64,000 nt of DNA. It comes from Apostichopus japonicus. Taxonomy: Eukaryota > Echinodermata > Holothuroidea > Aspidochirotida > Stichopodidae. Shown one piece after another: positions 505 to 64,000 of the stretch. Below the pieces are notes generated by a model. That model ran no database searches. It saw nothing but the letters and a program-made list of their open reading frames with translations, and was not told where the DNA came from. How positions within the stretch are numbered: the first letter of the stretch is position 1; every line of letters begins with the position of its first letter. The stretch is taken from positions 26,314,841-26,378,840 of the forward strand of contig NC_092575.1 in assembly GCF_037975245.1 (NCBI RefSeq), given 5' to 3'. Made by a program: the position numbers and the translations under genes.

Positions 505-2035
505 TTTAAAAGTTTATTGAAACTAATCAAAAGTAAACATACAATATCAACAAAACCTTACTGAAACTATTCAAAAGTAAACATGCAATATCACCAAAAC
601 CTTACCGAAACTATTCCAAAGTGAACAAACAATATTACCAAACCATACTTAAACTATTCAAAAGTAAACATACAATATCACCAAAACCTTACTGAAACTA
701 TTCAAAAGTAAACATGCAATATCACCAAAACCTTATCGAAACTATTCAAAAGTAAACAAACAATATAAAAAAAAACCTTACTGAAACTATTCAAAAGTAA
801 ACATACAATATCAACAAACCCTTACTGAAACTATTCAAAAGTAAACATACAATATCAACAAAACCTTACTGAAACTATTCAAAAGTAAACAAACAATATC
901 ACCAAACCTTACCGAAACTATTCAAAAGTAAACATGCGATATCACCAAAACCTTACTGAAACTATTCAAAAGTAAACAAACAATATAAAAAAAACCTTAC
1001 TGAAACTATTCAAAAGTAAACATACAATATCAACAAACCCTTACTGAAACTATTCAAAAGTAAACATACAATATCAACAAAACCTTACTGAAACTATTCA
1101 AAAGTAAACATACAATATCAACAAAACCTTACTTAAACTATTCAAAAGTAAACATACAATATCAACAAACCCTTACTGAAACTATTCAAAAGTAAACATA
1201 CAATATCACCAAAACCTTACAGAAACTTTTTGAAAGTAAACATACAATATCACCAAAACCTTATCGAAACTATTCAAACGTAAACAAGCAATATCAACAA
1301 AACCTTACCGAAACTATTCAAAAGTAAATAAACAATATCATCAAAACCTTACTAAAACTTTTCAAAAGTAAACACACAATATCACCAAAACTTTATCGAA
1401 ACTATTCAAACGTAAACAAGCAATATCAACAAAACCTTACCAAAACTATTCAAAAGTAATAAACAATATCATCAAAACCTTACTAAAACTTTTCAAAAGT
1501 AAACATACAATATCACCAAAACCTTACTGAAACTATTCAAAAGTAAACATACAATATCAACAAACCCTTACTGAAACTATTCAAAAGTAAACATACAATA
1601 TCAACAAACCCTTACTTAAACTATTCAAAAGTAAACATACAATATCAACAAACCCTTACTGAAACTATTCAAAAGTAAACATACAATATCACCAAAACCT
1701 TACAGAAACTTTTTGAAAGTAAACATACAATATCACCAAAACCTTATCGAAACTATTCAAACGTAAACAAGCAATATCAACAAAACCTTACCGAAACTAT
1801 TCAAAAGTAAATAAACAATATCATCAAAACCTTACTAAAACTTTTCAAAAGTAAACACACAATATCACCAAAACTTTATCGAAACTATTCAAACGTAAAC
1901 AAGCAATATCAACAAAACCTTACCAAAACTATTCAAAAGTAATAAACAATATCATCAAAACCTTACTAAAACTTTTCAAAAGTAAACATACAATATCACC
2001 AAAACCTTACTGAAACTATTCAACAGTAAACATAC
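505..2035. repeat. 44-bp minisatellite array with higher-order structure
   Basis: About 34 head-to-tail copies of an AT-rich unit of about 44 bp (core ACTGAAACTATTCAAAAGTA followed by AACATACAATATCACC). Successive CCTTA starts fall 44 bp apart, for example 556 and 600. Some units are 43 bp. A variant block starting at 1221 recurs at 1704, an offset of 483 bp or eleven units. An earlier block is repeated about 220 bp apart (five units). There is no open reading frame and no spacer-repeat alternation. The array lies beyond the 3' end of the TRAFD1-like gene. Confidence 0.95.
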
Positions 2036-2617
2036 AATATATCAACTATGACACAATTTGTTGTTATTTAATTGCCCTTTAGGGATGACTGTAAAACAGG
2101 TAAGACAATCAGAAGGTGATAAAGACTTAAAGGTAAAGTTTCTTATAATGCAGGGTACAGAAGGCACTGTGATGGTATCACTAGATGCACACACTTAGAA
2201 GCCAGTACTAGGGACCTTGCACCACCTGAGGAGAAGTATTCTACAATAGGTCAAAAAGTCAATCTATTACAGTACGTAACATCAGCAATGTAGATATGTA
2301 CATGTTCCTACACTCTTCAACAGATATACACTAATGTGTTTGGGAACATATACTGTATATATGTGCTAACAAAAATCGGATTGCACTTGGGTAAATAAGG
2401 TCACCTCTTTGACTCAGCTGTTCTAATAGGTTTTAATGCTGAGGTATTTTTCAACTTTGCAAAGACCAATATGGTAATGCATAATGGCAAAGAACAAAAA
2501 GTTTTGTTGCTTTAAGTGATGCAGCAGAAAAAAGAGAACATTGTATTTTAGGGTGAAAAAAAAAAACATCTTTGATCTAATTGGTTAGTTTGAAATTAAC
2601 GATATAAATCTTCTCAC

Positions 2618-10400: not shown

Positions 10401-13400
10401 GGTTCCCAGATAGGGATTGAACAGCTCTTCATCTCTGGAAGGGTAACGCCACGCTGTGTCTGCAGGGGCATGATCAACTTCAACAACATTGTGGAAGTTT
10501 AGACCGTTACCGAGTCCGTTCTGTACGAGTTGACATTCCTCCTGGTAGTTATGATAACAAAAGCAAGTAAAATTAATCATTCGAAAACTGACTGGGAAAA
10601 TATAGAAAAAGTTGAAAAAGAGAAAAGAAATTTATGGCTAGATTCTGAGATATGAAAAAAGAGATTCATTCTCCTTCCTCGCTAGCAAATTTATGCAATC
10701 CTGTTTTCTTAGAATAACTGGCTGCAGTTCATAATCACATGACACTTATAAGAGTCCATGCAAACTTACCAGAGCTACAATTTGGAAACTATTGTGAACT
10801 TATCTTTGGCTTACCTGATGTGCGTTAAGTATTGTTGAAGATATCAACTGATTACAGAACTCGCAGGGAATCTCAAAGTCACTAGGGAGATCCGCCTCCT
10901 CCTGGGCGTCGTCAACGCTGAAACTTGTGTCTGTGTTTCTGGGCGCTCTGTTGAAATTGGCATTAGCAGGAGGCGACGAATGAGGCGCAAGTCCTAACAG
11001 GGCCAAGTCGGTCGGTGAGACATTGGAAGTGCTCTGTGACGGTTGGACTGCAACGCTGTCTGCTTCGATGTTAGCAAGCTGAAAGGCTAAGAGGTAATCT
11101 TCCTGCTCCTGTTGTTTTGTGGGGGAGCTTCCATCTATCTCTAAATGATGATGATAATGATGATGAGGATGATGATGATTAATACGAGAAGGACAAATGT
11201 TGCAAAAGTGGAAATTGAAGATCTGGTGCTACTAGTTTTATTCAGATGATGTTTCTAGGACTTCAATGGGATGCTGTCATTGTAATGTAATCTTAATCAA
11301 AATCTAAAATGTATGGACCATGCCCCCTACCCCCCCCCCCTCCTGTGCCTACATTCTTGAATAGTTATATGACATTAGATACCCTACCTAAACCTATAAG
11401 AGCAATATAATCTAGTATAAATGCTTGTGCTTTATTCAAAACTTTTAGCTTCCAATGAGTGGATAAGAAAAAGATATGCCTGTGCTGAATCATTCTGAAT
11501 TTGGATACATACTACCCATTGTTATTTAAACTTGGCATCCAAATATCTATACGTTCTTTAATGTTTACAGCCGACCGCACACTGCCCCAACTGGTCAAGA
11601 CCAGACTAAACTCCACCATTGTGACCCAGTATTCGATAGTTGTTAAGGCCCTTGGTCTTACAACTGACCTTGTACACTGTGCCACTGATTATCACACACG
11701 ACAACTATTCACTGCTAACGGCTGGTGTTCATTTAGTCACAGGCAAAGTTACTTGATTGGTTAAAACTGTTAAGACTGGGTAATTTTAGTTATGAACAAC
11801 CACGCAATGCCGACAGCCGATCAGCAAAAGGCTACATGTTCTGTTTTCACGACTGAAGCAGACACAACTCAAAACTGGCAAACACTTGATAAGTCGTAGT
11901 CTTAAGTTCACATGAATACTGTCGACTATCCAGGAACAACGATGGTCACGTTGAGTTTATAGGGTCGTGTGGTCAGAGTGCGGCAAGCTTCAAAGCTTAG
12001 CACATCTGAAAAAACGGCCGCATTCCTGTTTTAGCCATATACACAGAGAGACCAACAATACTAACACCCACTGATGGATGAGAAAATAGTACAGGAGTAA
12101 GAGTATATTTACCATCTGTCGGGGGACAATATAAATTCTGAACAGTTCTTTCATTTTTTTGGTTGTGCCTCTGAGTAGTTTCGTTTTTCAAACTCCTCCT
12201 CTGACCGATCATTGAATTCGAGTCCAATTCTTCCATGACTGTCTGGCGGTAATACGGCTCGTGATGGAAGGGTACGTCTTCCGGAAAGAAGTCCACGACA
12301 TGGTTTCCTGGCCAAAGACTTGTTTGCTCTGGTCCTCTTGTGTAGGTCAAAGGTTGTTTGTAGGGATTCATCCCATTCTGCCCAAGGCTTCTTTCTTGGC
12401 AGCCGTTATGTTCGTGCAATATCTGATCTCTCAACTTGACAAATTTCTTACACTTCTCACACTTCTCGGTCCTACTTCCGCAGAAATCTTTGTGTTCGGA
12501 CATTTTTTCAAAGGTCAAATCTATTTCGCAGTACTCACATTTAACCTTGCGAAGTCGACACCCATTTTCCTAAACGTGAGAGACAATGATACACAGTGAC
12601 ACTTTTAAACTGACAAATAAAAATAATTGCATGCATGGGTTTACACATTCATTGTGCTTGTATTGTTCCTAGGATTAATAAAGGTTACCATGGCGCCACC
12701 AACAAAGTATTATATATTCATGAAGTGTGAGCAAGACTGCGCAAATACTACCATTTCAATTTACGCCTTCATGGAGAAATGGAAAAAGGAACAAAACTAC
12801 ATATTATTAATTACTGTACAAGAGCAGAAAAAAAACGACACATGATATTGAAGTTTTCATTAATTAATCTGATAAATGTTCGTGCTTTTCTTGTTCGTCT
12901 TAGAACTTGCAGCTCTCCATAGATCTGTCAAGTCATTTAAAAATATCTGATCAATGATATTCAGAGCATTGAGAATTTGTTTAAAAAAAATGGTCTTCCA
13001 AACTGTAAAACAAACGAAAATCCAAACTAAGCTAAAACTTTCAATTGCATAGCCACCCGATGTGCAGTGTTTATGTATTAAGCCATTGGGCCTCTCCCAC
13101 ACACATATGTGTGGCTGCTAAAGTATTTCACTTTTCTCCCCCTTTTGGTTTTTTGTTCCTTCCTCCTCCTTTTTTGTTGTCTACGTAAAATCATTTATAG
13201 AAAACATAATGGCTAGGAAGCCAGCCATTAGCTCATATTTATCTTTTTGTGATGTGATGATTGTGGATAAATTATCATCAAGTAGCAAGTCCTCCTTTGT
13301 AAAAAAATTGATTGGATTGGGAGGATTAGAGGTTGGTTTTATAATTTTTCAACTTTAATTGTTACCATGTGTATACTTATTAAAAGTGATATCCAATATC

Positions 13401-16400
13401 TGGTTGGATATCCCCCCCCCCCCAATAAAAATCAGAATGCAAAAATGCATTGTGGTTTCGATGATATAACATGAGCAGTTTTTCTTCATGAAATCTGACA
13501 TAATGGGGTGTAAACGTTTATAAGTGTTTCACAATTTGACCTCTGATGTACCTTTGACCTCTATCCAAACACAATAGGAATTTTTAACTCAATGTGGTAT
13601 TATCTACACACTAAATTAGAGGTGGGCCCAAGCTGCCAGTATTGATATATCGTGTTTACAAGGTTTTCACAATTGACCCCTGGTACTACTACAAACTAAA
13701 TATGAAATTTGTCTGACCTTCCCTTCTTGAGATCTCTCATGTTTACAAGCTGGGCATCACAAACGCACTAACTCACACACACACATACTCCATCATGAAT
13801 GCATAGGTTACGATTATCATCGAAACCAAAAATGGGGTTTGGATTTTTTTGGTTATACGATTTGGAAGACCATTTTTGATATATGCCACTAAAGACTTAA
13901 TCTGTCAATAAGTTAGATCAGGTAAATTGGTATCAAAAGTTCCACCTGATACGTCACCTCCCCACTACATCCCCTCCCCCTCCTCTCAGCCCCCCTCCCC
14001 CTCCTCTCAGCTCCACCCCTCATCCCAGGAAAGCAACATGCAACTTACCTACTACACATAATGAATAGTTCAAGCAAATGTGTGTGAGAAGCCCAATGGC
14101 TTATTACATACCTTTGACATCGGATGGCTATCCAATCCACAGCTTTTATATACATGTAGCTCATGTCAGATATTTTTCATTTTATGATTTGGAAGAGCTC
14201 AAAATGTCAAGTTATCGTTGCTTACCTTATGAGACTCCATCTGTTCTTTTTCAAAACTTTCCCCACATTCACAAGGCTCCTAAAGCATAGAAGGAATAAA
14301 ATGATGCAAGAAATAATTTAGGATCAGTAAATTAATTAAAATTAGTTATGTCACCTTGCTGATTTCAACAGCTGAAATCCTGAGTCAGAACACTTGTAAA
14401 CCTCAAGTAAACAAAAGCTAAACATCCTGGGTTTCCTGACTAAATTTGTAGAGCAATATAGACTGTTTTCTTACAAGACCTTGGCTTTCTAGATCATGTT
14501 ATTTTGCCGCTTTGCTTTAGGTGTTATTTGTTGATCACTAATTTCTCTACGCTTTTCCGTTTTCTTGACATGCTTCTTTGCAATGTCTTATATTTTCAAC
14601 CTAATTCTAGTCTTGTGATGAATACAGTCCATATTGCAATTTCTTCACTCCTGTTTGCACCATGTTTGTCATCAAAATCTTACACCCCAAGAAAGCAACA
14701 TGCAACTTACCTACTACACATAATGAATAGTTCAAGTAAACATGTGTAAGGAGCCCAATGGTTTATTACTTACACTTCACCTCGGGTGGCTATGCAATCC
14801 ACAGCTTTTATAGCTCATGTTGGATATTTTTTTCACACATAAAAGTTAGATTTACTCAATGGTTTGGTGAAGGTCTTCAGCTATCGAACTAGTATTCACC
14901 CCCTGTAATGCGGTCACGGCATTGTTTATAGTTCAAACATGAACAGTTTATTCGTCCTTTAATGCTTACAAATGAACCAATCTCTGTTGCCTGTAACTGT
15001 ACAATGGGGTCCTCCAGCCATGTGCAATATCAACAGAGGGCACTCTCATACTTGGTCCTATCTAGAACTGCAAAAACTTGACCAGCTGCGGTCTATGACC
15101 GCAGATCAGCCTGAGTTTATCATTAGTAAAAAAACATTTTTGCAGGTAACTGTTAAAGCAGAGATCTTGTTAAACATTTTTTTCAAAGTTCCAAGTTATT
15201 GTGTAAGGCACCTTAAAATGTGTCTTCTAAAGCATAGTTTAGGCCAATGTTCCCCAAGCTTGTGATCGCTTTCACACAATTGTGTTACTTTTGATTCTGT
15301 AAACACAACAGATCACCGATATTGTGTCCAAAACGACAGTGGTCTCAGTTGATACGCTGGGGAAACCTGTTAGAAATTGAAAGAGTATTCTCTCAGGTTA
15401 TCAAAAGGAAAGTCCAGGTAATAATTTTATATTTGACCGATGAAAGAGGAACCTCCCTCTGTCCATTTATCCTTCCATTCATCCAATTTTGTAGCAATCT
15501 TTGCGTCAACAATTTCCTGGTGACACAAAACTTTTCACAACATATCTATATAAGTTTCAATGCAGGATTGTAAATGCAGTGCATTCATGTCACCTTCCAC
15601 TAGCCAAGTGAACCGTTAATAGACAGAATTGGCAGATATGTTCCATTATTCCAATCCCGACCCTTAAATACGTTGACACGGCATTACAGCGGGTGCATTC
15701 TAGCTCGATAGCCGCAGACCTTCACCAAACCATTGAGTAAATCTAACTTTTATGGTAATAGGGCGTTTTCATGTTTGTGCACCGCGTCTATGGAACGCCC
15801 CATTGGTTGCTTCAAGTCCCAAATTAGAACTCATCTTTTTATCATGTACTTTACTGACTGATCTTGGTTTTTATTTGTCTTAACCTTGTTTATTTACTAG
15901 TTTTGTTAATTGATTTTTTCTTTACTGATTTCCTTTGACTACTTTATTCCTTTTATTACTCCGATGTATCATATGTATGAATATGTGTATATATATGTAT
16001 TGTGGGTGGTGGGGGTGGGGTGGGTGGGTTTTACGTATTTGGTTGGTGTGTGGGTGGATATAAGTGCTACTGAATACTTGTATTGTTCTCTTTATTTACT
16101 TATTGGAGCACTCTACTAGACAAGCCCTCTGGATTCTTTGTAGTGCTTCCTTTCACAACTTTCCCAGTTGTTGATATGTTTTGTCACTTAGTTAACTTCT
16201 CTGTATTTATATTGTGAAGAAACAAATGAATGAAATTAAATGAAATTTGTACCTTCTTCAGATTTTCCTCTTAGTAAAGTTCTTTAGAGATATTCTTCAA
16301 GTAAAGGGGCAAGGGCTACATTAATACATAAATTATTATTACTAAGCAGGACCTGCTGAATCATTGACATGCTATTTAGTGATAAATAAGTTTAAATCAA

Positions 16401-19474: not shown

Positions 19475-22289
19475 CTGTATTAAAGAAGAAAAGAAATAAA
19501 TTAGGAAATATTAATTAAACATGAATCAAAGAGCAACATGTCTTGCATTCAGCTTGCAGTAAATATATTATTAAAGCCTTAGTCCCTGAACCCTTAGACA
19601 TGGTTGTGAAAACTTTCAAATTCAAAACTAAGAACCTCTAGTCATCTGTGAAGATTTTGATGATAAACATGGTGCAAATAGGAGTGAAGATATTGCAAAA
19701 TGCACTGTATTCTCCATTGTCAACTTTGATAGCAAAGTAACAACTGAACTGGATAAAATTGATAAAATCCAACAAGGAAACATCGACTATACAAATCCTA
19801 TATAATTGAATTAATCCAACTCAAAGCAGTTACTGCTATATAGTGTAAATCGACATTCCAAGATGGCAACAAAACTGCTACAAAAAGCAGATCACTGGTA
19901 TTTTGTAGTTTCTCCAAAAAGTAAGCATATTTTGCTCCGGCTATGACTCTCTGGAAATTAAACATGAATATTTTGGTTTAATTCTGAGTGACGTTCCTAC
20001 ATGTCTAATACAATGTTGATGCTGTAAATGTGTCCAATCACTATAACTTAACAGAGTAGTCTGGAAACCTAATGTGGCATGGTACGTAATATAGCATACT
20101 TTGGGAATTACATGATGTTACCATAGCAACTCAGAGTAGGCCATGCTTTAAGGATGCTTGCTAACAAGTCGCTCAATATGTTTTACACAAAAGTGAAGCC
20201 ACAAGATGATGTAAGTTTGATATTAAAATAGGTCAAATCACAATTCAGTAACTATATTTTTTTTTCTGCTAGGCAACTTCGATCAGGAAATGTATACATT
20301 CTTCTTGTTCCTATGATCATTTCTGATGTAAATATGAAGGAAAAAATCAAACCTTTCTTATTTGTAACATATTACATAGGACAGTATTTGTAACTCCCCG
20401 GAGGAGGAACAAATCGATTCCAGCTACATTCCACTCAAATAGACTTACTGCACTGTAACTTGTAAGACATCATACTTCAGTACCAATATTAATGACGATT
20501 TCACTGCAACAATTGCCCAGAATTTCATTCAAACAATTTTGAACAAAGTTTGAATACAATTATCTATGTGTAGGCTAGGTCACATTTGTATATGCTTGAT
20601 AAAGTAATCAATTACCATTCAAAGTTTAAGTCCACCTAATTCACGCTACCCTTACCACTCTCAAACATGAGTAACCAGCTAATCTGAGCTAACAATTTCT
20701 GTAACTTTAACTGTAGGCCTATATGCCTATTGTTTAGAAGTAATTTAAGCTATAGCTTTGCATAGGGCTATGTTAGATCAAAACCAGTCAGTGTTTGGCT
20801 TTAATTCTTTGGTGGGAGCTGTTTACCCAATCCTCAGGTAAATAAGGATGGTGCTCTTGCTTATTTAATCAACTGTTGATTGACTGCACATACTATAGCA
20901 TTTTTTGAACATCTGTCTAGGCCTGCATCATGGAAACCAGGAACTTTGTGCAATTTCTAAATGTACTCCTTGGATAATGCACAAATGCAAAAGTTTTTTC
21001 CAAGGCTTGATGCATCCAGTAATCGGTCACCAAGATTGATTGGGTGCAAGAACCCCATCCTTATTAAACTTACGATCGAGCAAATAGCTGCCACCAATTT
21101 CTTTTTTCCTAAATGTAATTGTTTACAGAGCTTATTAAGAGTGCAGTTAGGACTTGTCTACTTTATTATGAATGAAGCTATATAGGAAGCAGGATGTACG
21201 TTATAATATCTCAACTTTGCTGGTAGAGGATCTGAACTTGAGTAACGAACATATGCACCAACAAGTCTTTCGCCTTTACTGCAGTAGGTTAGCTTAGGCC
21301 TAGCCTAACGTTACTGTAGTTTACCTGTCTGAGGTCCTTTAGGACTAGACCCAAACTTAAACAAAAACACAATAAGAAAATCACCATTTCATTCTACATA
21401 CCAGCGAGAACAATTTAGAGAGGAATTCAGAGAAGCAGGCGTGTTACTGCATATCAAAGAAATTTATGTTGAACTTTTGCAGGACCAAAGAAGGATTGAA
21501 CAGAATATAGAAGTACGTTTCACCTTCGTTCGGTTTGATAATATTATAAGACAACAGATTTGCCATTGGTCTAACGTACGTACGTATGCTATGGTTACAT
21601 TAGCCTAGCCAATGACGGTTCAATTTCATGATGTCACTGATTGATCGAAATGGCAATGGGGGAATTCCCAATGTCAACACTGTATCGTCTGAGTAACACT
21701 CCCTCGCCCACACTGATTTCAGGGTGTCGGTCATTATGATTGTGAAATCTCGCCTCTGTTAAGGATATCACGACAAATTAACTTAATATTTATCAATAAT
21801 TTGGATTACTCATTTATTTTCATATGCATTTCACCAGGGAGACGGCATGCAGCCCTCGATCGATCGCGTTTTTCAACTTATATGTCTTGCCTGTAGCCTA
21901 TATAACTGTCGAGGTAACAATTTATCTGACCAACATATAAAATGACTATTATAGTTAGGAATTATCTTTGGTATTATGAAAATAGTAAAAAAGTGTGAAA
22001 ACATTAGATTCACAAGATCGACTGACTGGAAAATAAATTCATGTAACACTTTTTTTGCTGTTACCATTTTAATAGCATTAGATACATAATTTTGATCAAC
22101 ATCTTAAGCAAATGAGAGGATTAAATGATCATTTCTCAAGGCAGGTGAGCCTGCAGGGCATATAATGTATCCTTTAGTTTAGGCAAGCCCATCATTGAGA
22201 CTGATTGTTAATAATTCTGTTTCTGACAATCATTTACTTTAATGATATCGGATGTGAATGATAAATGTTCGTATATACTAAATAAAATG
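19475..22289. other. Upstream region of the TRAFD1-like gene, no coding exon seen
   Basis: No coding exon is supported on either strand. Because a splice acceptor (TTTAATACAG) sits directly at 19475, a non-coding first exon and promoter of the TRAFD1-like gene should lie somewhere in this stretch. I could not place them. Confidence 0.45.
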
Positions 22290-33254: not shown

Positions 33255-36200
33255 CTTTCAGAAAGGAGAAAAAGAATGCCGCAATTTTTATAATTCTCTC
33301 TGTTAATTTTATATAAGCTACAATGGAAGTGAAGGGTTAAACACTATATAGGTTTCAAGTTTCTTTGTAGAACACAATATTTCATAGCTTGAGTTTTTAC
33401 AGTTAGTTGTATATTATTTTACTGTTGAGAAAAATAAAGTGGTCCAGACTATTATGGCTACATTTTGTTTAATGAGTTTTCATCAGGTAAAACCAAGTTT
33501 ATTTTCCAGGTAATCAAAGGTTACAACAGACCTGATTAAAGGGGACACAAACCCAACTATCACCTTTACCTTAACTAATCCCAACTATCACCTTTACCTT
33601 AATTAATCCCAACTATCACCTTTACCTTAATTAAGCCCAACTATAACCTTTACCTTTATTAAACCCAACTATCACCTTTACCTTTATTAAACCCAACTAT
33701 AACCTTTACCATTATTAAACCCAACTATCAAATTTACCTTTATTAAACCCAACTATCACCTTTACCTTAATTAACGACAGGGACCAATGTGAAGACCAAC
33801 TCCCGAAAACATGTATTATGCAAATATCTTGTTCTGTACGGGAGATATCTTGGTTGAAAAGTCTTGCCTGGGAGCTGTCATTATGTAAATCTTCCAAGTC
33901 ACCATCCCACTAGAATCTGAATCCTGTCACTTAATCTTTTATTTTCATTTTCATATTGTCCAGGTAGAATATGACCAGTGTTGACCCTGAAACCTAAGCC
34001 ATCTTTATGTCATATTAAGAGCTTCGATAGTTTAGATTCAGCACTTGCAGTACTCATCTCCATTACAGAAAGAAACAAATCTTGTAATAAACAAAGAGAA
34101 GCAAAAATAATTTGAGGCAAGTGTCACTCGCATATGTAGACTTGATCAAGCCTTGGGCTTTGTCAGTTGCTATAGCAACAGTTTCCATGGTAATGGTTAA
34201 GTTTCCTGAGCAACTACTCCTGGGGTGTCACCCATGGTGGGGTAAGGCACGATGACTGAAAGTTCATGACTTGGGGGACGGGGGGAAAGGAGGGACAGTG
34301 GGGGGGTCGGGGGTCAAAATGTGTCCATTTGCATGAATGTGGGTGTGTGTCCAATTTTGTGTCAAAAACTCCTAAACAGCTGAGCAGATTTTCTTCATAC
34401 TCTGTGGGAAGGTACTCCACGGTGAACCAAAGTTCAGAGGTCAAATTTAGTGAAAATCATTTTGTTTTTGGCTTCAACACCAAGGGAAAACACTGAATTG
34501 ACATGGAACCTTCAGAAGCAAAATGGAAATTGGCAAGTACTATCGAGATATGTTGTTGCCATGGCAACAAACGTCACAATGTTAAAGGTCAAATGTATAT
34601 TTTTATTGCAATTTTGTGTAAAAAACTCTTCCTAAATGGCTGTGCCGATTTCACTTCAAACTTGGTGGGATGATCCTTCATGAAGACACACACAGCATGG
34701 GAAGTGCTCCATTAGGAAAATATTTGTTCATCAATTTTGATGTGAGCTGATCAGCTCAAAACATGGGACAGTGCCCCTAATAATCAATACTCTTACCATT
34801 GTTAGCCATATTGGTATGTAGATGCCACGGGAATCATGCGAATAATTGACACCGAGAGACAACTGAATACCCATGATGGCAGCATTGAGAATGTTCGGCG
34901 CCCAGCTGAAGAGAGAAATATAAGAAGAGAGAAATATGAGAATATTTGTTTCATGAAAATGGGAAACGTCTGTCGTCTCATAGCAAAGATGCTGCTACCA
35001 GGAAAAAAGAGCTATTTATGTTGTGATTATTCACAACTTTGATAACAGTTCTGATGAGCATGTGTGTGTCCTGTCCACCTTTGTGTTCCTCTTAGCCTGA
35101 TGATGTCATGTTGAACAGGGTGTCACACTATAAACTCTGTCTTTTGGAAGTTATTCTTCCACGTTAACTGATTAATTGGTAGCAACTTCTTTTGACTTCA
35201 CAAAAAATGGTTTACAATGTTCATGAATGTGCACTGTTTAACTTCCGATGACTATTTCTGCCTAAGAATCTTACATATTGACCGTATCATATAATTCAGC
35301 CCTATTAGAAAGAACATGTGCTTTAGACGATCTTTGAATCTATCAATGCTATTGCAAATTGGAATCTATCAACGTTATTATTCATGCAGATAGTGCTTTA
35401 GATAACCAGGGAATGGGAAAGGGTAGAGGGGTTAGGATGGGAATGGATAGAGGGGTTAGGATGGGAATGGGTAGAGGGGTTAGGATAGGAATGGGTAGAG
35501 GGGTTAGGATGGGAATGGGTAGAGGGGTTAGGGTGGGAATGGGTAGAGGGGTTAGGATGGGAATGGATAGAGGGGTTAGGATGGGAATGGGTAGAGGGGT
35601 TAGGATGGGAATGGGTAGAGGGGTTAGGATGGGAATGGGTAGAGGGGTTAGGGTGGGAATGGGTAGAGGGGTTAGGATGGGAATGGATAGAGGGGTTAGG
35701 ATGGGAATGGATAGAGGGGTTAGGATGGGAATGGATAGAGGGGTTAGGATGGGAATGGGTAGAGGGGTTAGGATAGGAATGGGTAGAGGGGTTAGGATGG
35801 GAATGGATAGAGGGGTTAGGATGGGAATGGGTAGAGGGGTTAGGATGGGAATGGGTAGAGGGACTAGGATGGGAATGGGTAGAGGGGTTAGGATGGGAAT
35901 GGGTAGAGGGGCTAGGGTGGGAATGGGTAAAGGGGTTAGGGTGGGAATGGGTAGAGGGGTTAGGATGGGAATGAGTAGAGGGGTTAGGATGGGAATGGGT
36001 AGAGGGGCTAGGGTGGGAATGGGTAGAGGGGTTAGGATGGGAATGGGTAGAGGGGTTAGGATGGGAATGGGTAGAGGGGTTAGGATGGGATTGGGTAGAG
36101 GGGTTAGGATGGGAATGGGTAGAGGGGTTAGGATGGGAATGGGTAGAGGGGTTAGGGTGGGAATGGGTAGAGGGGTTAGGATGGGAATGGGTAGAGGGGT

Positions 36201-39200
36201 TAGGATGGGAATGGGTAGAGGGGTAAGGATGGGAATGGGTAGAGCGGTTAGGATGGGAATGGGTAGAGGGGTTAGGATGGGAATGGGTAGAGGGGTTAGG
36301 GTGGGAATGGGTAGAGGGGTTAGGATGGGAATGGGTAAAGGGGTTAGGATGGGAATGGGTAGAGGGGTTAGGATGGGAATGGGTAGAGCGGTTAGGATGG
36401 GAATGGGTAGAGGGGTTAGGATGGGAATGGGTAGAGGGATTAGGATGGGAATGGGTAGAGGGGTTAGGATGGGAATGGGTAGAGGGGCTAGGGTGGGAAT
36501 GGGTAAAGGGGTTAGGATGGGAATGGGTAGAGGGGTTAGGATGGGAATGAGTAGAGGGGTTAGGATGGGAATGGGTAGAGGGGCTAGGGTGGGAATGGGT
36601 AGAGGGGTTAGGATGGGAATGGGTAGAGGGGTAAGGATGGGAATGGGTAGAGGGGCTAGGGTGGGAATGGGTAGAGGGTTTAGGATGGGAATGGGTAGAG
36701 GGGTTAGGATGGGAATGGGTAGAGGGGTTAGGATGGGATTGGGTAGAGGGGTTAGGGTGGGAATGGGTAGAGGGGTTAGGATGGGATTGGGTAGAGGGGT
36801 TAGGATGGGATTGGGTAGAGGGGTTAGGATGGGAATGGGTAGAGGGGTTAGGATGGGAATGGGTAGAGGGGTTAGGATGGGAATGGGTAGAGGGGTTAGG
36901 ATGGGAATGGGTAGAGGGGTAAGGATGGGAATGGGTAGAGGGGTTAGGATGGGAATGGGTAGAGGGGTAAGGATGGGAATGAATAGAGGGGCTAGGGTGG
37001 GAATGGGTAGAGGGGTTAGGGTGGGAATGGGTAGAGGGGTTAGGATGGGAATGGGTAGAGGGGTTAGGATGGGAATGGGTAGAGGGGTTAGGATGGGAAT
37101 GGGTAGAGGGGTTAGGATGGGAATGGGTAGAGGGGTTAGGATGGGAATGGGTAGAGGGTTAGGATGGGAATGGGTAGAGGGGTTAGGGTGGGAATGGGTA
37201 GAGGGGTTAGGATGGGAATGGTTAGAGGGGTTAGGATGGGAATGGGTAGAGGGGTTAGGATGGGAATGGGTAGAGGCGTTAGGATGGGAATGGGTAGAGC
37301 GGTTAGGATGGGAATGGGTAGAGGGGTTAGGATGGGAATGGGTAGAGGGGTTAGGATGGGAATGGGTAGAGGGGTTAGAATGGGAATGGGTAGAGGGGTT
37401 AGGGTGGGAATGGGTAGAGGGGTTAGGATGGGAATGGGTAGAGGGGTTAGGGTGGGAATGGGTAGAGGGGTTAGGATGGGAATGGGTAGAGAGGTTAGAA
37501 TGTGAATGGGTAGCGGGGTTAGGATGGGAATTGGTAGAGGGTTTAGGATGGAAAGGAATTGGTAGAAGACATAAAATTATCAAGTTGTCATTTGTTCACT
37601 TATGCATTCAATTTAAAATGAACACGGGGATAAATAACGCTATCTGATCTGGTTGGCTGAGAGTGAATGGGTATGGGGAGGGGGGTATCCAGGGCAGCGG
37701 GACCTCCTATTGTTCCTCTTACTTCGAGCTTACCAAACAGCGAAGACTATGACGATCCTCAAAAATTTCTTCTTTATCTGAGCCTTGACTTTCCTTTCAC
37801 GGTCTGTGTAAACTCCTCCTCTTTTAAGCATTGGAGAAACTGAATGAGAAGAGAGAGAAATATCAGTAAATTAGTCTGATGCATTTGCAAGACAGAATCC
37901 GGTTGCTCTATATCCTCGAGAAAATATATGTTTGGTGTTTTTTAAGCAACAATTGCTTTGCTTCGGCCTACAACACTTTCAGAGCAGGGTTACTCTGCAG
38001 ATTGGAGTAGACCAACTACGAAAGTGGAAGCAGCAGGATAATATCATCGCTATGGTTACTATACATCTGGATTTTCTTGGACATGTCCTCTTTATTGGTT
38101 TCTTATCAGAGCGCATTTTGTTACATGTACCTTGTCTCAGTCATTTCATATTTTTTCTTTCTTACTATTTTGCCAAAATAAAACCGACATGCCGAGAATA
38201 TCCTACAGTGATTCCACCAAAATTTTACTACAGTAGATTTCTGTTTTTAAATGCATTTGGCGTTTGGGTTGTCACTTTGTGTCATTAGGACCATTCTGTA
38301 ATCATAATAATTAACAGTTCTTATATAGCGCAACTTGCAATAAAGTCAATAAATTGATAACTTGTCACACCTACACACCAAAGTGTGCACACTTCAAACA
38401 ATCTCTCCTGGGGCACCACAGCCACGTGTCCCATGGGGAACTTCCCATAGGGTGCCGCCACAAACTGGCGCACGCAACTATATTTACAAGTCACCTCGCA
38501 AGTCCCCATTTATACACCTGGGTGAAGAGAGGCAATGGAGATAAAGTGCCTTGCCCAAGGCACAACTCAATGATCTGTCCAGGGCTCCAACCTGTAATCC
38601 TTAGATCACAAGTCCACTGCCTTAACCACTTGACCACAACGCCCACTGTATGTAGTTAGAAACATACATACAGCTGTGTGTAGTTAGAAACATACATACA
38701 GCTGTATGTAGTTAGAAACATTTTGTACACATTTCCTGTCAGAACTTCAGCAACCTGTTACAAACCCGTTGACCCGTTGAAGTTTATAATAAATTATTGC
38801 CAGATTTCGTGTTGCCTGGTGTGAGTTTAATGACACAGTTTATTATTTGCCTTCAGGTAGCCGCAAGATCAAATTGACAAGTTATGAAACTGGTGAACTT
38901 ACTTTGTCTGGAAGATAAAATATACAAAATAGGCATGGCAATAAACACAATGTAAAGGGCACAGTAGGATCCCCACATCAGCCATTTGCTGTGTTGTTGG
39001 TCAAATTTAGTGGAACACTCAAACTTTCTAGAAATAGAAAAAAAAGAGAACAAATTTAATACACTTGAAACATTTTCCTATATACAAATATAAATAAACA
39101 TATTGTTATGATGACTGCAGTCTGCAGCTTCTTTAAACTCTTGGACATTTTTGGAATACTTGTTATAGGGCAGTACCATTTTCCTGTCAGTCAGTCAGTC

Positions 39201-42200: not shown

Positions 42201-45200
42201 CATTGCTCTCATGATTGGAAAGAGAAACATCTTGTAGACAATGAAACCTGTCAATCGACGCCACTTGAAAGTTTACCATTTTAAATATTCTTATAAAGTT
42301 AATGGGTGTGAAGACTCTCGCAGAAAGAAACGTCTCATGCCGGTAATCTGACTTAGTTTCCAATGAGGTGTAACAGAAGTGTTAGACACCACCATCGATC
42401 CCAGAAAATACACACACAGCTTGCTACCGTCGATAATTAGACACTAGTGTACAGTCAATACATACAGCTAGCTGTCAATACCCATAGTACAGTGTACAAA
42501 GCAGCAATGTACATCTCAGCAGGGAGTTGTTATGGAACTCCCTGATCTCAGGTCCAGATAAAAGATAACAAGGTATCACGTTCCATTACCGTATGCATTT
42601 TGTAGTGACAAGAAGAAAACTTCACTTGCAAGAGACGGAAAGTTAACTTTTTCAAGTCGCGGCACACGGTTTGGGGCGAGTCTTCAATGCCTTAAGGAAT
42701 ATTTTGATCACGTAACTCTGCCAGGGTCAAACCAACAGAGTGAGTGGCAACTTTACTGAGAAGGGCTTCGGAAGGGAGCTCATCAGTTGGTAAAGAATTT
42801 AGAGTTGGCTGGTTAATATCGATATGGATCTTAACACCACAAGTTTTGCAACGTAAGAGTACTTGAACAGAATTCGCTATCTCTATTGCTATTATATATT
42901 GCACTACTGTCGAACAATATCAGTTCTCTCTACATAGTTTTTATTGCAATACAGTCTAGAGTCCCATGCTAATCTTTCTTTTTTTTTTTTGCTAGTTAAT
43001 TACCATTGCATTAATGTCACATGTACTTACATAGAAGTGATATTGTCAGAATATTGTCAGGGCAAATGTGTAACCTTTCAAAACAAATTTGAAACCTATC
43101 ATACTTTCATATGTTGTAATACCTAGCCTACTTTGCATATATTAGAGGCAAGCCTGAAGCTAAGAGCCAGCTAACTGCACTTTTTCGGATGACAAAGAAA
43201 AATCACAAGGACTAGAAACACAGAGTACTGAACACATGACTTGAGTGAACCTGGTCATAAGTGGAAAATAAAGGTTTTGAAATGCAACCATCTACCTCCT
43301 GAAAACAGCTTTTTGCATTTGATTCATAATATTTAACAAATCCCCACAATATTTCTCAAAGTTTGATTGCTAGGAAAGTGTAGGAAAGTTTTTTCCACCT
43401 AGTGAACCAGTATTAAGCAATAATATCATATAGAAATAAATATTGCAAATTGGATTACCTGTTCAACATTCAACTTGACTTGTTAACATGACTTGTCCCT
43501 CTAATGGTTTACATTTTAGTGTGATGCAAGGTTATGGAAGATCGTTGACTTGTAGTGACCTGTAGCTGAGGGCGTACGGTGTTAAAAGGGCTTTATACAA
43601 ATTCACTCTAGGGAAAGTAGAGTGAAAGTGCTGAGTTTTTGAGGGGACAGGTAAGGAAGTGAGCAGAGATAACGTATAGAACATTATCAAGAATATCATC
43701 AAAGTCAATCAAAACAAGTTGGCTTACTAAACCTCTCCTCAAAGCTGTATGCTCATGTGATATCCATAGGGAACCCAGTTATAAATAGCATATGACATCA
43801 TGATCACACAAACTCACATGTATAATAGTCTGTTCACCTTTTTGAACTCTCTGTTTTTGAGTAAAGCAATCGAAAGGGCTGATCTACTCCAACTTAAAAG
43901 GAAATAAACCTTCCAGGAAGTTAAAACTGTAGTTGCTTTGATTGCTTCATTCGATCCTCGTTGATAGAGTGCAGCTTGAAGAAGTTAAAATTCTGGGGAG
44001 TATTCAAAACTAAATAACCCACAAAATAAGAAATGTACATAAAAACCTAGGATATAAAGGGAAGTGAAACAAATTTAATTGACCAAGGCTATGACAACAG
44101 CAGCACACTAACTACAAGGACACTAATTACTGTACTTGGATGAATTTAAGTTGTGGAGACTTATGAGTTTTGTGATCACTTCCTCAAGTCTTTGATATAA
44201 GCCATGAACTGCATGGCCTGGAATAAGTACATATTGTTGTACATCTTTTGAAAGAAAAACAAAATCAATTTTTTTTTCTTTCAATTTTTCAACTTTTGGT
44301 ATGCTGTTAGCATTGTCCAACAAGCTGAATGTCGCTTAAAATCCCTCGTGTTTTTCATATTTTTAAGATAAATTTAGCATGCAACTGGGGTGCAAATCCT
44401 GGTTACCCCTGGCTGGATACTGTAGGTCAGTTTTTAGTTTCGATGAAATCTTTACCTTTGTAGTCATGCAGGCTGATGAGTGTGTGTACAGGTATGTGTG
44501 TGACGCCTTGCTTGTAAACACGTTATCTTAAGTCGGGAAGCTCAAACTAAGCGCATATTTAGTGTGTAGGAGTACCACATTGAGAAAAATATGCATATTA
44601 TTTTTGGGGGATGTCAATTGTCATTTGGGGTCACCAGGCGTCAAATTGTGAAAACCTTGTATACACGATATATCAGGAAGGGAATCTTTGACCAATCTGA
44701 TATTTAGTATGTAGTTGTGAAATGTTTAAGTACTAAAAGGGTATCGTTTTTGTGGATGTCAGAGGTCATTTGGAGTCACCAGAGGCCAAATTGTGAAAAC
44801 TTGTAAACAGGATAGCTCATGAAGGGAAGCTTGGAGCAATCTCATATTTAGTATGTAGTTGTGACACGTTAAGTTCAATATAAAGCCTATTAAGTTCAAT
44901 ATAAAGCATATTGTTTTTTGTGGAGGTCAAAGGTCATTTGGGGTCACTAGTGGTCAAATTGTGTACAAAAAGGTGTACTCGTGCACAAGCAGCGTTGCTA
45001 TTGGAACGAACGATATCACTGAATCATTGGTATTATATATTTGCTTCCCGTTGTTGAAGTTTTCCGTTGTATTTTGCAATTGTCGAGATTCAGTGCCGAA
45101 TAAAAACTACAGGTTTGGATACAGTTACTTCCGGGAAATGGCTAGGTGCCGATTACAAAACTTAACTGTCGCCTTGTTAGATTTTTATCAATGACCAATC

Positions 45201-55180: not shown

Positions 55181-55440
55181 CATAATAATAATATAATAAT
55201 AAGCAAATATTTATATAGCGCTTTATGCAAAGGCCTCAAAGCGCTTAAAACAAGTACACAAATATGCAAGACAAATCACTGTAAATTTTGGAATAAATGT
55301 GTTTTTAAGAGACGCTTAAAACAGTCAACCGATGGTGCATTGCGAATTGAAGATGGTAGATTGTTCCAGAGATGAGGTGCAGCAGAGATGAAGGCTCTTT
55401 CTCCATAAAACTTTGTGTTTGGGGTATGGCTGGTAAGAAA
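55181..55440 (+). mobile_element. Dispersed interspersed repeat ('tatatagcgctttatgcaa' type)
   Basis: Starts with an ATAATA run, then 'tatatagcgctttatgcaaa', 'cctcaaagcgctta' and 'ttgttccagagatgaggtgc'. I know this layout from repeats in marine invertebrate genomes. Its start resembles part of 38290-38660. No ORF. Confidence 0.55.
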
Positions 55441-55546
55441 ACTTTGCCCCAATAAGTCAACATTTTACAGTAAATTGTTTAGATAACAAGATAATATCTT
55501 ATCAAAAATCATAAAATTGTTGGATTGCACAGTTGCTTTAACTGAG

Positions 55547-56519: not shown

Positions 56520-59500
56520 ATGTTTCAGCAGGGCGATTTGTCCAAGAAAGGACAACTGCTAGATAAAGCAAAAGCCGCAAGAGAAGAGAGAGCCTTGACG
56601 AAAAAGAAAGAAGAAGCAGCAGTAAAGATACAGGTGATCTACACCATGACGTGATACAAATAGTGTATTCCAAACCTTCACTGAAGTAGGCCTGCCGAGT
56701 ACTGTATGCTACACTGTCACTGTCTCACGATAGGCTATACTTTAATTGTTAATCTTATAAACCGCAGGCCATACTCACTTACAAATACAAATCAGGGATT
56801 TGCCCAGGAATGTTTGAGTGCCGTACAGATTTGTGCGGTAGTGTGATCCACGTCATGGGGAGGGGTATTAGAGGTGGTCCCTTCCCTTTGGAATTTGTTT
56901 GCAAATGAAGTACTGTATGCTTAGGCCTATAGAGGCTACTGTAGATGGCAAATTGTGCTAATGCTATCTTTCTCCTATTCTGGCACTAACTTCAGTGCCA
57001 AATATTCTCCTATATTTCGGTGATGGTAAAATCTGATAAAAATAGTCATAAAAAAATGTGCCGGGCGAAAATGTTTAAGAACTGGTCGTGCTGGGAGCAT
57101 TCAGAACTGCCGGGGATGTAACCCCCGGGGGTTACATCCTGGTGGCCACCACCCCCCACACCGCCTGGCGTGAGTACATTCCGGCAAGTGGGGTTGTTAC
57201 TTTGGAACTGACTGTTGTGATTGTGTTTAACTATGTAAGTTGCAATGTTGTGACTCAATAACATTGGTTGGCATGAAAGTCAATCCATTCCCATCTATAT
57301 ACATACAAACTTTATCTGACAGTTAGGCCTAGGCTAGTGTAATTATTTAGACCAATGGTATGATGGGACTTGGTAGGTGCCTAGGGTTATGATTATATAT
57401 GTTAAACAAATTGTTAGAACAGTTCATTGCCAAAGTTAACATACAGTCTGGTGGTTTACTAAGGGCATTGAAACTTATATGAATTGTTTTGTGTGTGACC
57501 ATCAGTTGCTTCTACAGTTGATATCCTCCAAAATTCTACTTTTAACAAGTATAGTCACACATTTCTAAAGTGACCTATAACTATTGTAAATGATAAGGGT
57601 TAGTTAAGTTTAGTTTAGTAGAAAAAAAGGTCAGGAGGGACACTCATCTCCCATCAAGGACATCCCTTTAGGAGAGAAAAAAACTGAAGACACAAACACT
57701 AAGACCCTATTACAATGCTGATAGTGCTTGTCCAAAGCATTCTTAAACCCATTGACACTACTTGCAAGTACACCTTTCTCAGGCAAACCGTTCTACTCAT
57801 TCACAAGCCTATTAGAAAAAAGTAATGCCGAATATTAATCCTAAAAATACTTTGTGAATTTTTGGAGTTTAAGACAATGGCCTCTGGTAAAAACTACTAT
57901 TAGCAAACATGAAAAAGTCAGTGAAGGATTAATTGTCAAAACTATACACAATCTTGAAACCCTAAATCAAGTTACCACATAACCTCCTAAGCTCCAGTTT
58001 GGTGAGATTCAACAGTTGTAACTGCCTATAATAAGGAACACCCTTTAAGGAACTAATCATCCTAGTAGCCCTCCTTTGGACCACTTCGAGGTCCAGAGGG
58101 TAAGTCACCGTTAGCAAAAGTTTTCTTATTTTTTTCTCAACCAACAGGCGCTTGTGAGAGGCTTTCTGAGTCGAAGACGATTCCAACATTTGATGCTACA
58201 AAGTTTGGACAAACTTCTTTCCGATTGTGGTGCAGAGCAAACATTTCCCAAAGAGTCATTGAGACCTTGTGAGTAAAAGAAAAAGAAGTGAAAGTAGAAA
58301 TGTTTAATGTTGCACAGTTTTTGAGGAAAAGTTAGTTTCTTAGTTTTGAAGATTTCTGTAATTGGACATGTACAGTATATGCTGATTATCAGAATCCCTG
58401 ATTTTCCAAACCGGCCATCTGTTCATTAATAAAAAGTCTGGAGGCCTAGTGTTATTGATTCCAAGTACTGTACTATACTCATATTATGTACAATGTAAAT
58501 TTTTTAATTTACATCATAACGATCAGTTTTTAATTCTTTTGACAAAACATGTCTATTTTCATTCATTCTTCCATGGCTTTATATATCGAATAGATTATCA
58601 CCTACTACAGAAATGTCTGATTGTTATTTGTATCAAGATTGTAACCTCACAACGGTAATATATACTATTGAACATGTGGTCAGAGTATTGAAATGACAAG
58701 GAAAAATATTAGAGCCTTATTTTATCTTTCTTTTATAAACACAGAACAACCATTTCTGATAACTACTAGCAAGCAATCACATAATTGCCATGAGGTGCCT
58801 TTTCCCCGGCAGTTTGGCCCCTTGTTTTCTTGGCAATCAACGTTGGTAATTCAGTCAAACTTCCAAATGCCAGAAGTGACATTCACAGATAACATATTTA
58901 CCATAAACATAAATATTTGGAATTTTTTCCCCCACTTCCAGCATTGGTGTTTTATGCAGCTTCTCAGAAGTTCCTGTTCATCCACAGAAGACAAAATATC
59001 AAAGATGAAGAAAAGGTTTGCATTAAAGATGATTGTTCTCAGGCAGAAGATTGATGCCGAACATGTTTTGATGACAAAATAGCTGCCTTCCTTAAATTTC
59101 CAAATATCTCATAGTACAGTCCTAGCAAGTTAAATCAGGCAGCAAAATTAATCTATTTAAAGAAATGATGAACTTGATCATGATATGCAGCAGAAGCATA
59201 AAAGAATGATGATTGTTGTATTTGTTGTATCATTGGTGTATTTCCCTAAATTGTCTGCTTCTGGAATACCCCTTTAATATCGGTTGACCGTAGGCAGACA
59301 TTTAGGTTTTGAATGTCATAGTCTGACCAAAAAAAGAAGCGTTAAATTTCTGAAAATCCAGTTCTCACCTTTAAAACGTATGCTATTTAGTTAATTTATG
59401 CAGGGCGAGCCAGGAATTATTTTAAGCTTGATTTTACTCTCGAATTTTTTTGTCTCCTAAAGAACAAGGTGAAACGAATAAAAAAAAGAACAGATTTTAA

Positions 59501-62500: not shown

Positions 62501-63931
62501 ATTACTGCCCTCAGCGCAACAGTAAACAAACCATCCATTGCACAGCCCAGAGAGGTACAGAAACTACCCCCGAAAGTAGGACTCAGAGCAAGGAACCACT
62601 TATGTAATATACCAAACCGAAAGGGGCTAACACATGTCGTTGCATAAATAAAAATAAATAAAAATAAAATAACATTAAATGAGTACAGTTTGTCACATCA
62701 TAATAGAAATACCCCCACATTAAATATGCCTGTAATGATGGATATTCTTGTCTCTACTTCAGACCTTTTATCGGTAGCAACCTCTCGCCTCATCTTACTC
62801 ATGTCTTCATCCTTTATATCTTCTCTGTGCCTGGCTTGATCATTCATCTCAACAGACTATCCCCTGAGGTAAGATTCTGTAAATATACAGGTCTGTGTGA
62901 ATGATCAGTGGGGTCACCTAATGGTCACACATAACTAACATATCTTGTACACAGAACCAAACTTACCCACAAAAGACGATTGAGAAACAATTGACATCAG
63001 CTGGTATAAATTATCACTCTGCTTTGCTTCTGGACAACAATACAGCCTAGCTTTCACAACAAAATCCAAAGAAACTTCAAATTTCAAAAGTTGTAATTTG
63101 TTAAAAAAGCAACCCTGTCATAGCAATAACATTCAGAGAGAAACCTTCCTCCTCCCACCCCACACCCCACATCCCCCACCCCAACCCCCACCCCTTCAGC
63201 TTATTTGTTGCATTCCTATTGGTATGAATAGTGACAGATAGTTTTAGTTTTTACATAAGTACAATGAAACTCGGGTTCTAGGATAGGATGGCCTCAGACA
63301 GCATGTAAAGCCAATAACATTCCACATTGAATCAAATCTTTTTTATTGTTAAGTTTGTTTTTGTCTGACCTCTGACCTCCAGATTCAATCTTAGCTACAA
63401 AAGATGATTTGTATTTTTAAGTCAGAGAGAGAAATGAAATTTGTTAACACTGAAGATGCAGCAACCCATTGTTAAGTCCTGTAATCTTGAGACCATTCTG
63501 GGACCTGTTTCGCTTGAGACCGAAATGGAGCTGTTAAGATGGTTTGTGCTTGGAAATCAGGGATGGTTGTGTATTAAAGGAAGTTATAAAATACTGAAGA
63601 TGCATCAACCCCTTGTTGAGTCCTGTAGTTGAGAGTGCTGTACAAGCTGAATGGCTCACACTGGGATGGAGCAGGACAAATTGAAATGTAGATTTCATTG
63701 TATGAAAGCAATACACACCAGGTGATAATAAATATTTTATCCAAGCCTACTGGAAGTCTGTCCAATGCCTCATCATGTAGCAAAATCATCTTGGTTTGTT
63801 TCTATTTCAGAGCTTAGCTGTTTTGAAAAAACACAAGTTATTTTCTCATATCCTAACCTACTTTGATAACAAAGACAATGCAAGGAACCTTTTCACCTCT
63901 TTGGATGGGAACTATTCATTATGTGTAGCAG
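56520..63931 (+). CDS. UBE3B: Ubiquitin-protein ligase E3B, N-terminal part (runs off the window)
   Basis: Nine exons: 56520-56633, 58148-58268, 58942-59015, 59656-59712, 60333-60437, 61240-61339, 61962-62130, 62763-62868, 63811-63931. All are GT-AG with matching phases and give about 322 residues. Residues 20-55 hold an IQ motif split by intron 1 (AAVKIQ/ALVRGFLSRRRF), expected to bind calmodulin. Family landmarks follow: EWYVSVALSKDHL, GWIQQIK, QLCANIMGHL, and the segment SLDGNYSLCVAG at the end. The C-terminal HECT catalytic domain lies beyond the window. UBE3B is a mitochondria-associated ubiquitin ligase. I chose the start MFQQGD; an in-frame ATG at 56469 would add 17 residues without family support, and an acceptor-like site near 56491 suggests the ATG is in a second exon. 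Confidence 0.93.
56790..57200. mobile_element. Relative of the 51955-53311 hAT-like element
   Basis: Shares 'gtgatccacgtcatggggaggggtat' style sequence (similar to 51990-52030) and a later 'gccgggcg' / 'accgcctggcg' end with the 51955-53311 element. It lies in UBE3B intron 1. Ends were not resolved. Confidence 0.5.
57640..58115 (-). pseudogene. LINE reverse transcriptase C-terminal fragment
   Basis: A minus-strand frame (58189-57962) reads LEVVQRRATRMISSLKG, then YYRQLQLLNLTKLELRRLCG, the well-known 'lEkVQRRATkmi..l..l.Y..RL..L.L.sLe.RR' end of CR1-like LINE polyproteins. It continues with stops to about 57640. It sits in UBE3B intron 1 and ends about 30 bp before exon 2. Confidence 0.85.
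58372..58655 (+). mobile_element. Pogo/Tigger-like DNA element fragment, copy 2
   Basis: Same order of words as 8232-8545 ('gattatcagaat', TTCATTAATAAAAAGTCTGG, 'cattcattcttccat', 'tttgtatcaagattgt'). Same strand orientation. It lies in UBE3B intron 2 and has no ORF. Confidence 0.65.
60762..60800 (+). ncRNA. Hammerhead-like motif remnant
   Basis: GCCT, CTGAAGA, hairpin GATCC-TGCTA-GGATC, GAAA, CGTC, AGGC. The layout is that of a hammerhead core with one changed core base (CTGAAGA for CTGATGA), and the outer GCCT/AGGC also pair. Similar motifs occur in Penelope-like and other retroelements. The changed core makes catalysis doubtful. It lies in UBE3B intron 5. Confidence 0.4.
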
Positions 63932-64000
63932 GTAAGTTGCATGTGCTTTTGTGGGTGGGGGGGGGGGGTGGGTGAGGGGAGGGGATGTAGTGGGGAGGTG
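63911..64000 (+). repeat. UBE3B exon-9 end plus intron start, shared with TRAFD1-intron copies
   Basis: From GAACTATTCATTATGTGTAG through the donor GTAAGTTGCATG and on to GGGGATGTAGTGGGGAGGTG at the window edge, the order matches the minus strand of 14071-13962. The last 20 or so bases of the coding exon are included. The shared part may continue past the window. Confidence 0.75.

What the first reader, a model, noticed from the sequence alone, without database searches (positions are those of the whole stretch)
63911..64000. A UBE3B exon-intron boundary recurs inverted inside a TRAFD1 intron
The last 20 or so coding bases of UBE3B exon 9, its splice donor, and about 65 bp of intron match the minus strand of 13962-14071 almost base for base, with a second shorter copy at 14691-14735. 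The peptide SLDGNYSLC lines up with the conserved family, so the coding part looks native. This suggests a mobile element captured a piece of a gene including a working donor site and spread it. The copies put cryptic donors in the sense direction inside the TRAFD1-like gene.
Basis: partly seen in the sequence, partly recalled or inferred. Interest (0 to 1): 0.75.

Follow-up and report, generated by a model that had tools for sequence, protein, structure and literature searches.

The report
Gene-fragment copy patched into another intron
A 226-base piece of one gene (the end of an exon, its splice signal and some intron) was copied once into an intron of a nearby gene and part of it was copied again there; the likeliest cause is patch-like DNA repair, not a mobile element carrying it around the genome.

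Summary
The match is real and longer than reported. UBE3B 63909-64134 (the last 134 bases lie beyond the window) matches TRAFD1-intron 14071-13839 (minus) at 187 of 207 ungapped positions; a shorter second copy spans 14733-14683. Its core occurs at only these three sites in the 671.6-Mb genome at up to 3 mismatches, and a probe in the intron part only at the two longer ones. So the proposed spread by a mobile element is not supported. What is dispersed is different: a SINE-like repeat in the UBE3B intron and, as a separate copy, next to the fragment in TRAFD1, and a HINE-like (Helentron) element whose 5' end lies 6 bp from the long copy. The second copy sits in a 295-bp patchwork of three near-abutting pieces copied from 0.5-5 kb away, about equally diverged. 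I read this as templated insertion by template switching during break repair, from UBE3B to TRAFD1 and then within TRAFD1. The copied donors (TAG|GTAAGT) do lie in the sense direction of the TRAFD1-like gene; use of the nearer one would extend an exon into a stop codon, but whether it is used is untested. Known kind of event, mildly interesting case.

The parts
63811..63931 (+).
   Evidence: open frame between a TTTCAG acceptor and the donor; acceptor of the next exon at 66156-66163 of the extended sequence, frame continued by hand as ANLINLAHLDIEA; one match of the exon 9-10 peptide in the genome at E<=1, this one
63909..64000 (+). UBE3B source segment (exon end, donor, G-rich intron); it goes on beyond the window to extended position 64134 (G000:C15:26378749-26378974)
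13839..14071 (-). copy T1 of UBE3B 63909-64134, in the intron downstream of TRAFD1-like exon 14226-14279; its last 42 bases (13880-13839) are the start of the truncated SINE of the UBE3B intron
   Evidence: the SINE part by itself is weak (E 0.0086)
14072..14196 (-). SINE-like repeat fragment directly upstream of T1 (another insertion than the one in UBE3B)
   Evidence: nhmmer 14196-14080, E 4e-16, with a profile built from 16 dispersed copies
14683..14733 (-). copy T2 of the UBE3B exon end and donor, most likely second-hand from T1
14734..14831 (-). SINE-like fragment of T2, copied together with 14683-14733 from T1 (14021-14177)
   Evidence: nhmmer 14836-14737, E 1e-21
14838..14914 (-). T2 patch piece matching 15678-15754 (+), 70 of 77 bases equal
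14620..14681 (-). T2 patch piece matching 19651-19712 (+), 57 of 62 bases equal
13430..13832 (-). HINE-like (non-autonomous Helentron) element; six bases separate its 5' end from T1
   Evidence: dispersed (2399 candidates at first look, 40 scored); in the 10 fetched copies the match starts at 13829-13834, and their upstream flanks differ from this one; 3' end by eye; 5' end rechecked
14226..14279 (-). TRAFD1-like exon [18 protein letters not shown] between T2 (upstream intron) and T1 (downstream intron)
   Evidence: CTTTAG acceptor and AAG|GTAAGC donor; frame at 12569 that follows it matches Pfam TRAFD1-XIAF1_ZnF, E 1.3e-11

Best explanation
A 226-bp stretch of UBE3B (end of exon 9, its splice donor and the start of intron 9, running about 42 bp into a truncated SINE) was copied in inverted orientation about 50 kb away into an intron of a TRAFD1-like gene, joined to a resident SINE fragment there. 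Then, or in the same event, a 295-bp patch was made in the neighbouring intron from three nearby templates: the T1 segment, 15678-15754 and 19651-19712. The most likely mechanism is templated insertion by polymerase template switching during break repair (MMBIR, FoSTeS or theta-like end joining). Shown: the copies, their number at the stated stringency, the mosaic, and the similar divergence of its pieces. Inferred: the mechanism, the order of events and the direction from T1 to T2. The donors are by-catch; use in splicing is possible but untested.
For: Three sites genome-wide for the 26-base core at up to 3 mismatches, 0 for the reversed control; 2 sites for the 34-base intron probe, control 0. 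In DNA searches the non-SINE part matches only these places, apart from one 48-bp G-rich match on C16. All five matches between UBE3B 56401-64330 and window 1-24000 at E<=1e-4 are accounted for: T1, T2, two SINE pairs and one dispersed repeat (42 matches). T2 is a run of three pieces with gaps of 6 and 1 bp; the two outer ones have one other match each in the genome search, 0.8 and 5 kb away. Mismatches 7/77, 17/149 and 5/62 do not differ (p 0.72) and UBE3B-T1 is 20/207: one age fits all. Polarity: the UBE3B SINE runs over profile positions 173-320, in T1 over 171-210, and nothing like the rest lies in the same orientation in 12980-13430 beyond the HINE. T1 and T2 share a T for C and an added T against UBE3B, so one transfer from UBE3B is enough.
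Against: No empty site could be examined (no relative of this genome is held), so breakpoints, order and polarity are inferred. Junction microhomology is at most 2-3 bases by eye and was not tested. The exon-and-donor part of T1-T2 is less diverged than the SINE part copied with it (2/51 against 15/98, p 0.055), which hints at later gene conversion or constraint. The DNA search skips very common words and gives lower bounds. The rate of such patches elsewhere in this genome was not measured.
Confidence: 0.7

Rival explanations
1. A mobile element captured the UBE3B exon-donor piece and carried it into TRAFD1; the candidate carriers are the SINE beside it or the Helentron-like HINE next to T1.
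For: A HINE-like element begins 6 bp after T1's end; Helentrons can capture gene fragments (PMC4067079, passages read); a SINE adjoins the fragment at both loci.
Against: Only 3 sites genome-wide at up to 3 mismatches. The fragment lies outside the HINE, upstream of its 5' end, and no match to this HINE was found near the UBE3B source in the extended sequence to 70960; the nearest is 44431-44963 (E<=1e-8). The SINE next to T1 and T2 is not a copy of the UBE3B SINE made with the fragment: 70-78% identity against 90% for the fragment, and it lies on the other side of the fragment.
Confidence: 0.1
2. A plain, larger inverted duplication of UBE3B DNA into TRAFD1 that was later cut down by deletions and by the HINE insertion.
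For: One colinear 226-bp block with 90% identity; the HINE sits almost exactly at its end.
Against: No further UBE3B-like sequence in the same orientation in 12980-13430 beyond the HINE, and none unaccounted for in window 1-24000; it does not explain the three-piece T2 patch.
Confidence: 0.15
3. The copies are kept by selection because their donor acts in TRAFD1 splicing, for instance as a poison extension of exon 14226-14279.
For: Both copies keep an intact TAG|GTAAGT; the T1 donor lies 177 bp downstream of the exon's own donor, and reading on in the presumed frame meets a stop after 8 codons; the donor part looks less diverged than the SINE part (p 0.055).
Against: Not significant; UBE3B-T1 shows no such contrast (3/47 against 16/138, p 0.41); a crude scan found no acceptor-like AG within 400 bp upstream of the T2 donor; no RNA data.
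Confidence: 0.06

Closest known systems
Templated sequence insertions, class 2 (Onozawa and Aplan, PMC5110952; abstract read)
   Same: a sequence copied from elsewhere is inserted as a patch without transposon hallmarks
   Different: those are human polymorphisms templated from distant regions; here all templates are within about 50 kb, the event is old (about 10% divergence) and the animal is probably a sea cucumber
MMBIR / FoSTeS template-switch insertions (PMC8421209, PMC5120786; starts of abstracts seen in the listing) and short-range template switches in apes (PMC7954356; abstract read)
   Same: several adjoining pieces from nearby templates in both orientations
   Different: no empty site here and no tested microhomology; one template carries an exon end with a complete splice donor
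Helentron/HINE gene-fragment capture (PMC4067079, passages read)
   Same: a HINE-like element is adjacent
   Different: the UBE3B piece is outside the element and is not dispersed

Membership tests
Class 2 templated insertion / template-switch patch | insert matches a template elsewhere that is still in place | tested here: met
   UBE3B, 15678-15754 and 19651-19712 all present
Class 2 templated insertion / template-switch patch | several templates joined in one insert | tested here: met
   T2: three pieces with gaps of 6 and 1 bp
Class 2 templated insertion / template-switch patch | no target-site duplication, no poly(A), junction features of break repair | not testable with these tools
   no empty site available; junctions seen by eye only
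Mobile element that captured a gene fragment | fragment lies between the element's ends | tested here: not met
   T1 lies outside the HINE 5' end
Mobile element that captured a gene fragment | dispersed copies of the fragment | tested here: not met
   3 and 2 sites for two patterns at up to 3 mismatches
HINE (for 13430-13832) | subterminal inverted repeats, 3' palindrome, T-rich boundaries, often central repeats | tested here: met
   by eye only: TGGTTTCGATGAT near the 5' end, ATCATCGAAACCA near the 3' end, AATGCATTTTTGCATT palindrome, T runs; central units of about 144 bp in other copies such as L032; description from PMC4067079
HINE (for 13430-13832) | autonomous Helentron partner | not tested
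   no search made
tRNA-derived SINE (dispersed repeat) | tRNA-like head | tested here: inconclusive
   longer copies read like A and B boxes by eye (motif recalled), but ARAGORN found 0 in 10 copies and Rfam 0 in 6

The most novel reading that the evidence does not exclude
One repair event switched template at least four times over 50 kb between and within two genes on opposite strands, and so planted two working splice donors in the sense direction around a TRAFD1 zinc-finger exon; the nearer one is now used as a regulated poison splice site of this gene.
Probability: 0.05. Interest if true: 0.5.

Novelty: new member of a known kind. Interest (0 to 1): 0.22.

Why it matters
It shows how a complete splice donor with its exon end can be copied between genes apparently without a transposon, by an old, probably repair-made patch in an animal outside the usual study species. 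It also warns that an exon-intron boundary found more than once is not by itself evidence of gene capture by mobile elements.

Tried and rejected
Circular permutation (UBE3B has fragment-then-SINE, TRAFD1 has SINE-then-fragment, suggesting a circle or tandem array): rejected because the two SINEs are 70-78% alike while the fragment is 90% alike. Exonised repeat (the UBE3B exon end derived from a repeat): rejected because the exon end is not seen in the dispersed repeat and the protein frame continues. A comparison with human UBE3B rests on a fragment that I recalled (aligned without gaps over 33 residues) and counts only as a lead; the peptide had no significant match among solved structures (best E 1.9) and no Pfam family. 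Strong conservation of the donor core: not significant. The DNA match of 13516-13832 to 44431-44808 looked like another local template but is a dispersed HINE-like element. The match of 8264-8498 to 58386-58646, between the two gene regions, is a dispersed repeat with 42 listed matches. A match at 12986-13101 is an inverted, independent SINE copy.

Not done: RNA-seq, other sea cucumber genomes, base rate of such patches, junction statistics.

Full report
Setting. The window is G000:C15:26314841-26378840 of a 671,581,487-base, 35-contig genome. Size and contig number resemble the Apostichopus japonicus assembly (671.60 Mb, 23 chromosomes, 34 scaffolds; PMC10344927, passages read); this identification is an inference from size and contig number alone. 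The plus strand from about 56 kb to beyond the window carries UBE3B-like frames and the minus strand at about 9-18.6 kb a TRAFD1-like gene (Pfam TRAFD1-XIAF1_ZnF, E 1.3e-11).

Observation. It is confirmed and enlarged. With the 7 kb beyond the window, one block, 63909-64134, matches 14071-13839 on the minus strand (E 1.4e-41), 187 of 207 ungapped positions. The second copy covers 63909-63955 against 14733-14686 (E 3e-13, 3e-12). These values exclude chance.

Copy number. The 26-base exon-donor core has 3 sites in the genome at up to 3 mismatches and the reversed control 0. A 34-base probe in the intron part has 2 sites and control 0. DNA searches with the UBE3B end, T1, T2, the UBE3B intron and the T2 patch give 4, 8, 17, 30 and 19 matches. 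In one search, 28 of 30 matches start at query position 148 or later, in the SINE-like part; the other two are the query itself and T1. In one search the fragment part is matched only by the query, T2, UBE3B and one 48-bp G-rich piece on C16. Counts from that tool are lower bounds and it skips very common words, so the pattern searches are the firmer evidence. Stretches that read N are not covered.

What is dispersed. First, the SINE-like repeat: each of the 20 fetched copies overlaps at its best point with at least 16 of the other 23 sequences compared, with ragged 5' and fairly sharp 3' limits. A profile from 16 of them finds it at 64094-64250, 12987-13120, 14836-14737 (-), 14196-14080 (-) and, weakly (E 0.0086), at 13880-13839 (-). 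Its longer copies look tRNA-headed by eye, but ARAGORN (0 of 10 copies) and Rfam (0 of 6) did not confirm this. Second, a HINE-like element at about 13430-13832, with 2399 first-look candidates (40 scored, 104 matches). In the 10 fetched copies the match starts at 13829-13834; two of them, L030 and L033, have flanks like each other's. Its subterminal inverted repeats, 3' palindrome and T-rich ends, seen by eye, agree with the description of HINEs in PMC4067079 (passages).

Source and copy. In UBE3B the frame runs through exon 9 and, read by hand, on into exon 10. The UBE3B SINE covers 148 profile positions, while T1 carries only about the first 40 of it, and nothing resembling the rest in the same orientation lies in 12980-13430 beyond the HINE. 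Hence UBE3B is the likely source. T1 and T2 share two changes against UBE3B, so T2 came from T1 (or the reverse) rather than separately from UBE3B. A comparison of UBE3B 56401-64330 with window 1-24000 at E<=1e-4 gives five matches: T1, T2, two SINE pairs, and 58386-58646 with 8264-8498, which is a dispersed repeat (42 matches).

The patch. T2 consists of 14914-14838 (matching 15678-15754), 14831-14683 (matching 14177-14021) and 14681-14620 (matching 19651-19712), with 6 and 1 unmatched bases between. The outer two pieces have one other match each in the genome search. Mismatches 7/77, 17/149 and 5/62 fit one age (p 0.72), and so does UBE3B-T1 with 20/207. Against this, within the middle piece the donor part (2/51) is less diverged than the SINE part (15/98), p 0.055. 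Three adjoining pieces with three separate partners are most simply explained by T2 being the recipient of a template-switch patch. The 15678-15754 partner overlaps an open frame that looks like a LINE C-terminus by eye (recalled motif); Pfam did not confirm it.

Splicing. T1 and T2 lie in the introns after and before exon 14226-14279, and their TAG|GTAAGT donors point in the sense direction. From the exon to the T1 donor, 177 bp past the exon's own, the presumed frame meets a stop after 8 codons, so use would truncate the protein. A crude acceptor scan found none upstream of the T2 donor within 400 bp. Whether either is used is unknown.

Literature. Searches for templated insertion with template switching (15 of 22 papers listed), templated sequence insertion (5 of 5), duplicated splice donor with pseudoexon and template switching (10 of 11), Helentron/HINE (7 of 7) and sea cucumber SINE (1 of 1) showed no title or abstract start that describes this locus; beyond the listings I saw only the abstracts and passages named above. 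The mechanism is known in principle; this is a further case.

Noticed in passing
window 13430-13832 (-); also 44431-44963: High-copy HINE-like (non-autonomous Helentron) family with central tandem units of about 144 bp in the probable sea cucumber genome; 44431-44963 is a more diverged copy.
   Followed up: partly
window 12987-13120 (+), 14080-14196 (-), 14737-14836 (-); extended 64094-64250 (+): Old SINE-like family, mostly 72-87% alike, 28 matches to the UBE3B intron copy; the published annotation of A. japonicus lists SINEs at only 0.02% of the genome (PMC10344927, passage).
   Followed up: partly
window 58386-58646 (+) and 8264-8498 (+): Dispersed repeat of about 260 bp, 42 listed matches genome-wide (40 of 51 candidates scored), several 80-87% alike.
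   Followed up: partly
window 15678-15861 (+) and 55276-55464 (-): Frames FYGNRAFS... and FYGERAFISAAPHLWNNLP... look like C-termini of LINE reverse transcriptases (recalled motif; Pfam gave no match for the first, the second was not searched).
   Followed up: partly
window 508-2040, 35413-37566; extended 65219-66130: Long tandem arrays (periods about 88, 72 and 74 bp judged from BLAST offsets); the last lies in UBE3B intron 9 just before exon 10.
   Followed up: no
window 14021-14177 and 14683-14831: Direct repeats flanking TRAFD1 exon 14226-14279, about 500 bp apart; recombination between them would delete the exon.
   Followed up: no
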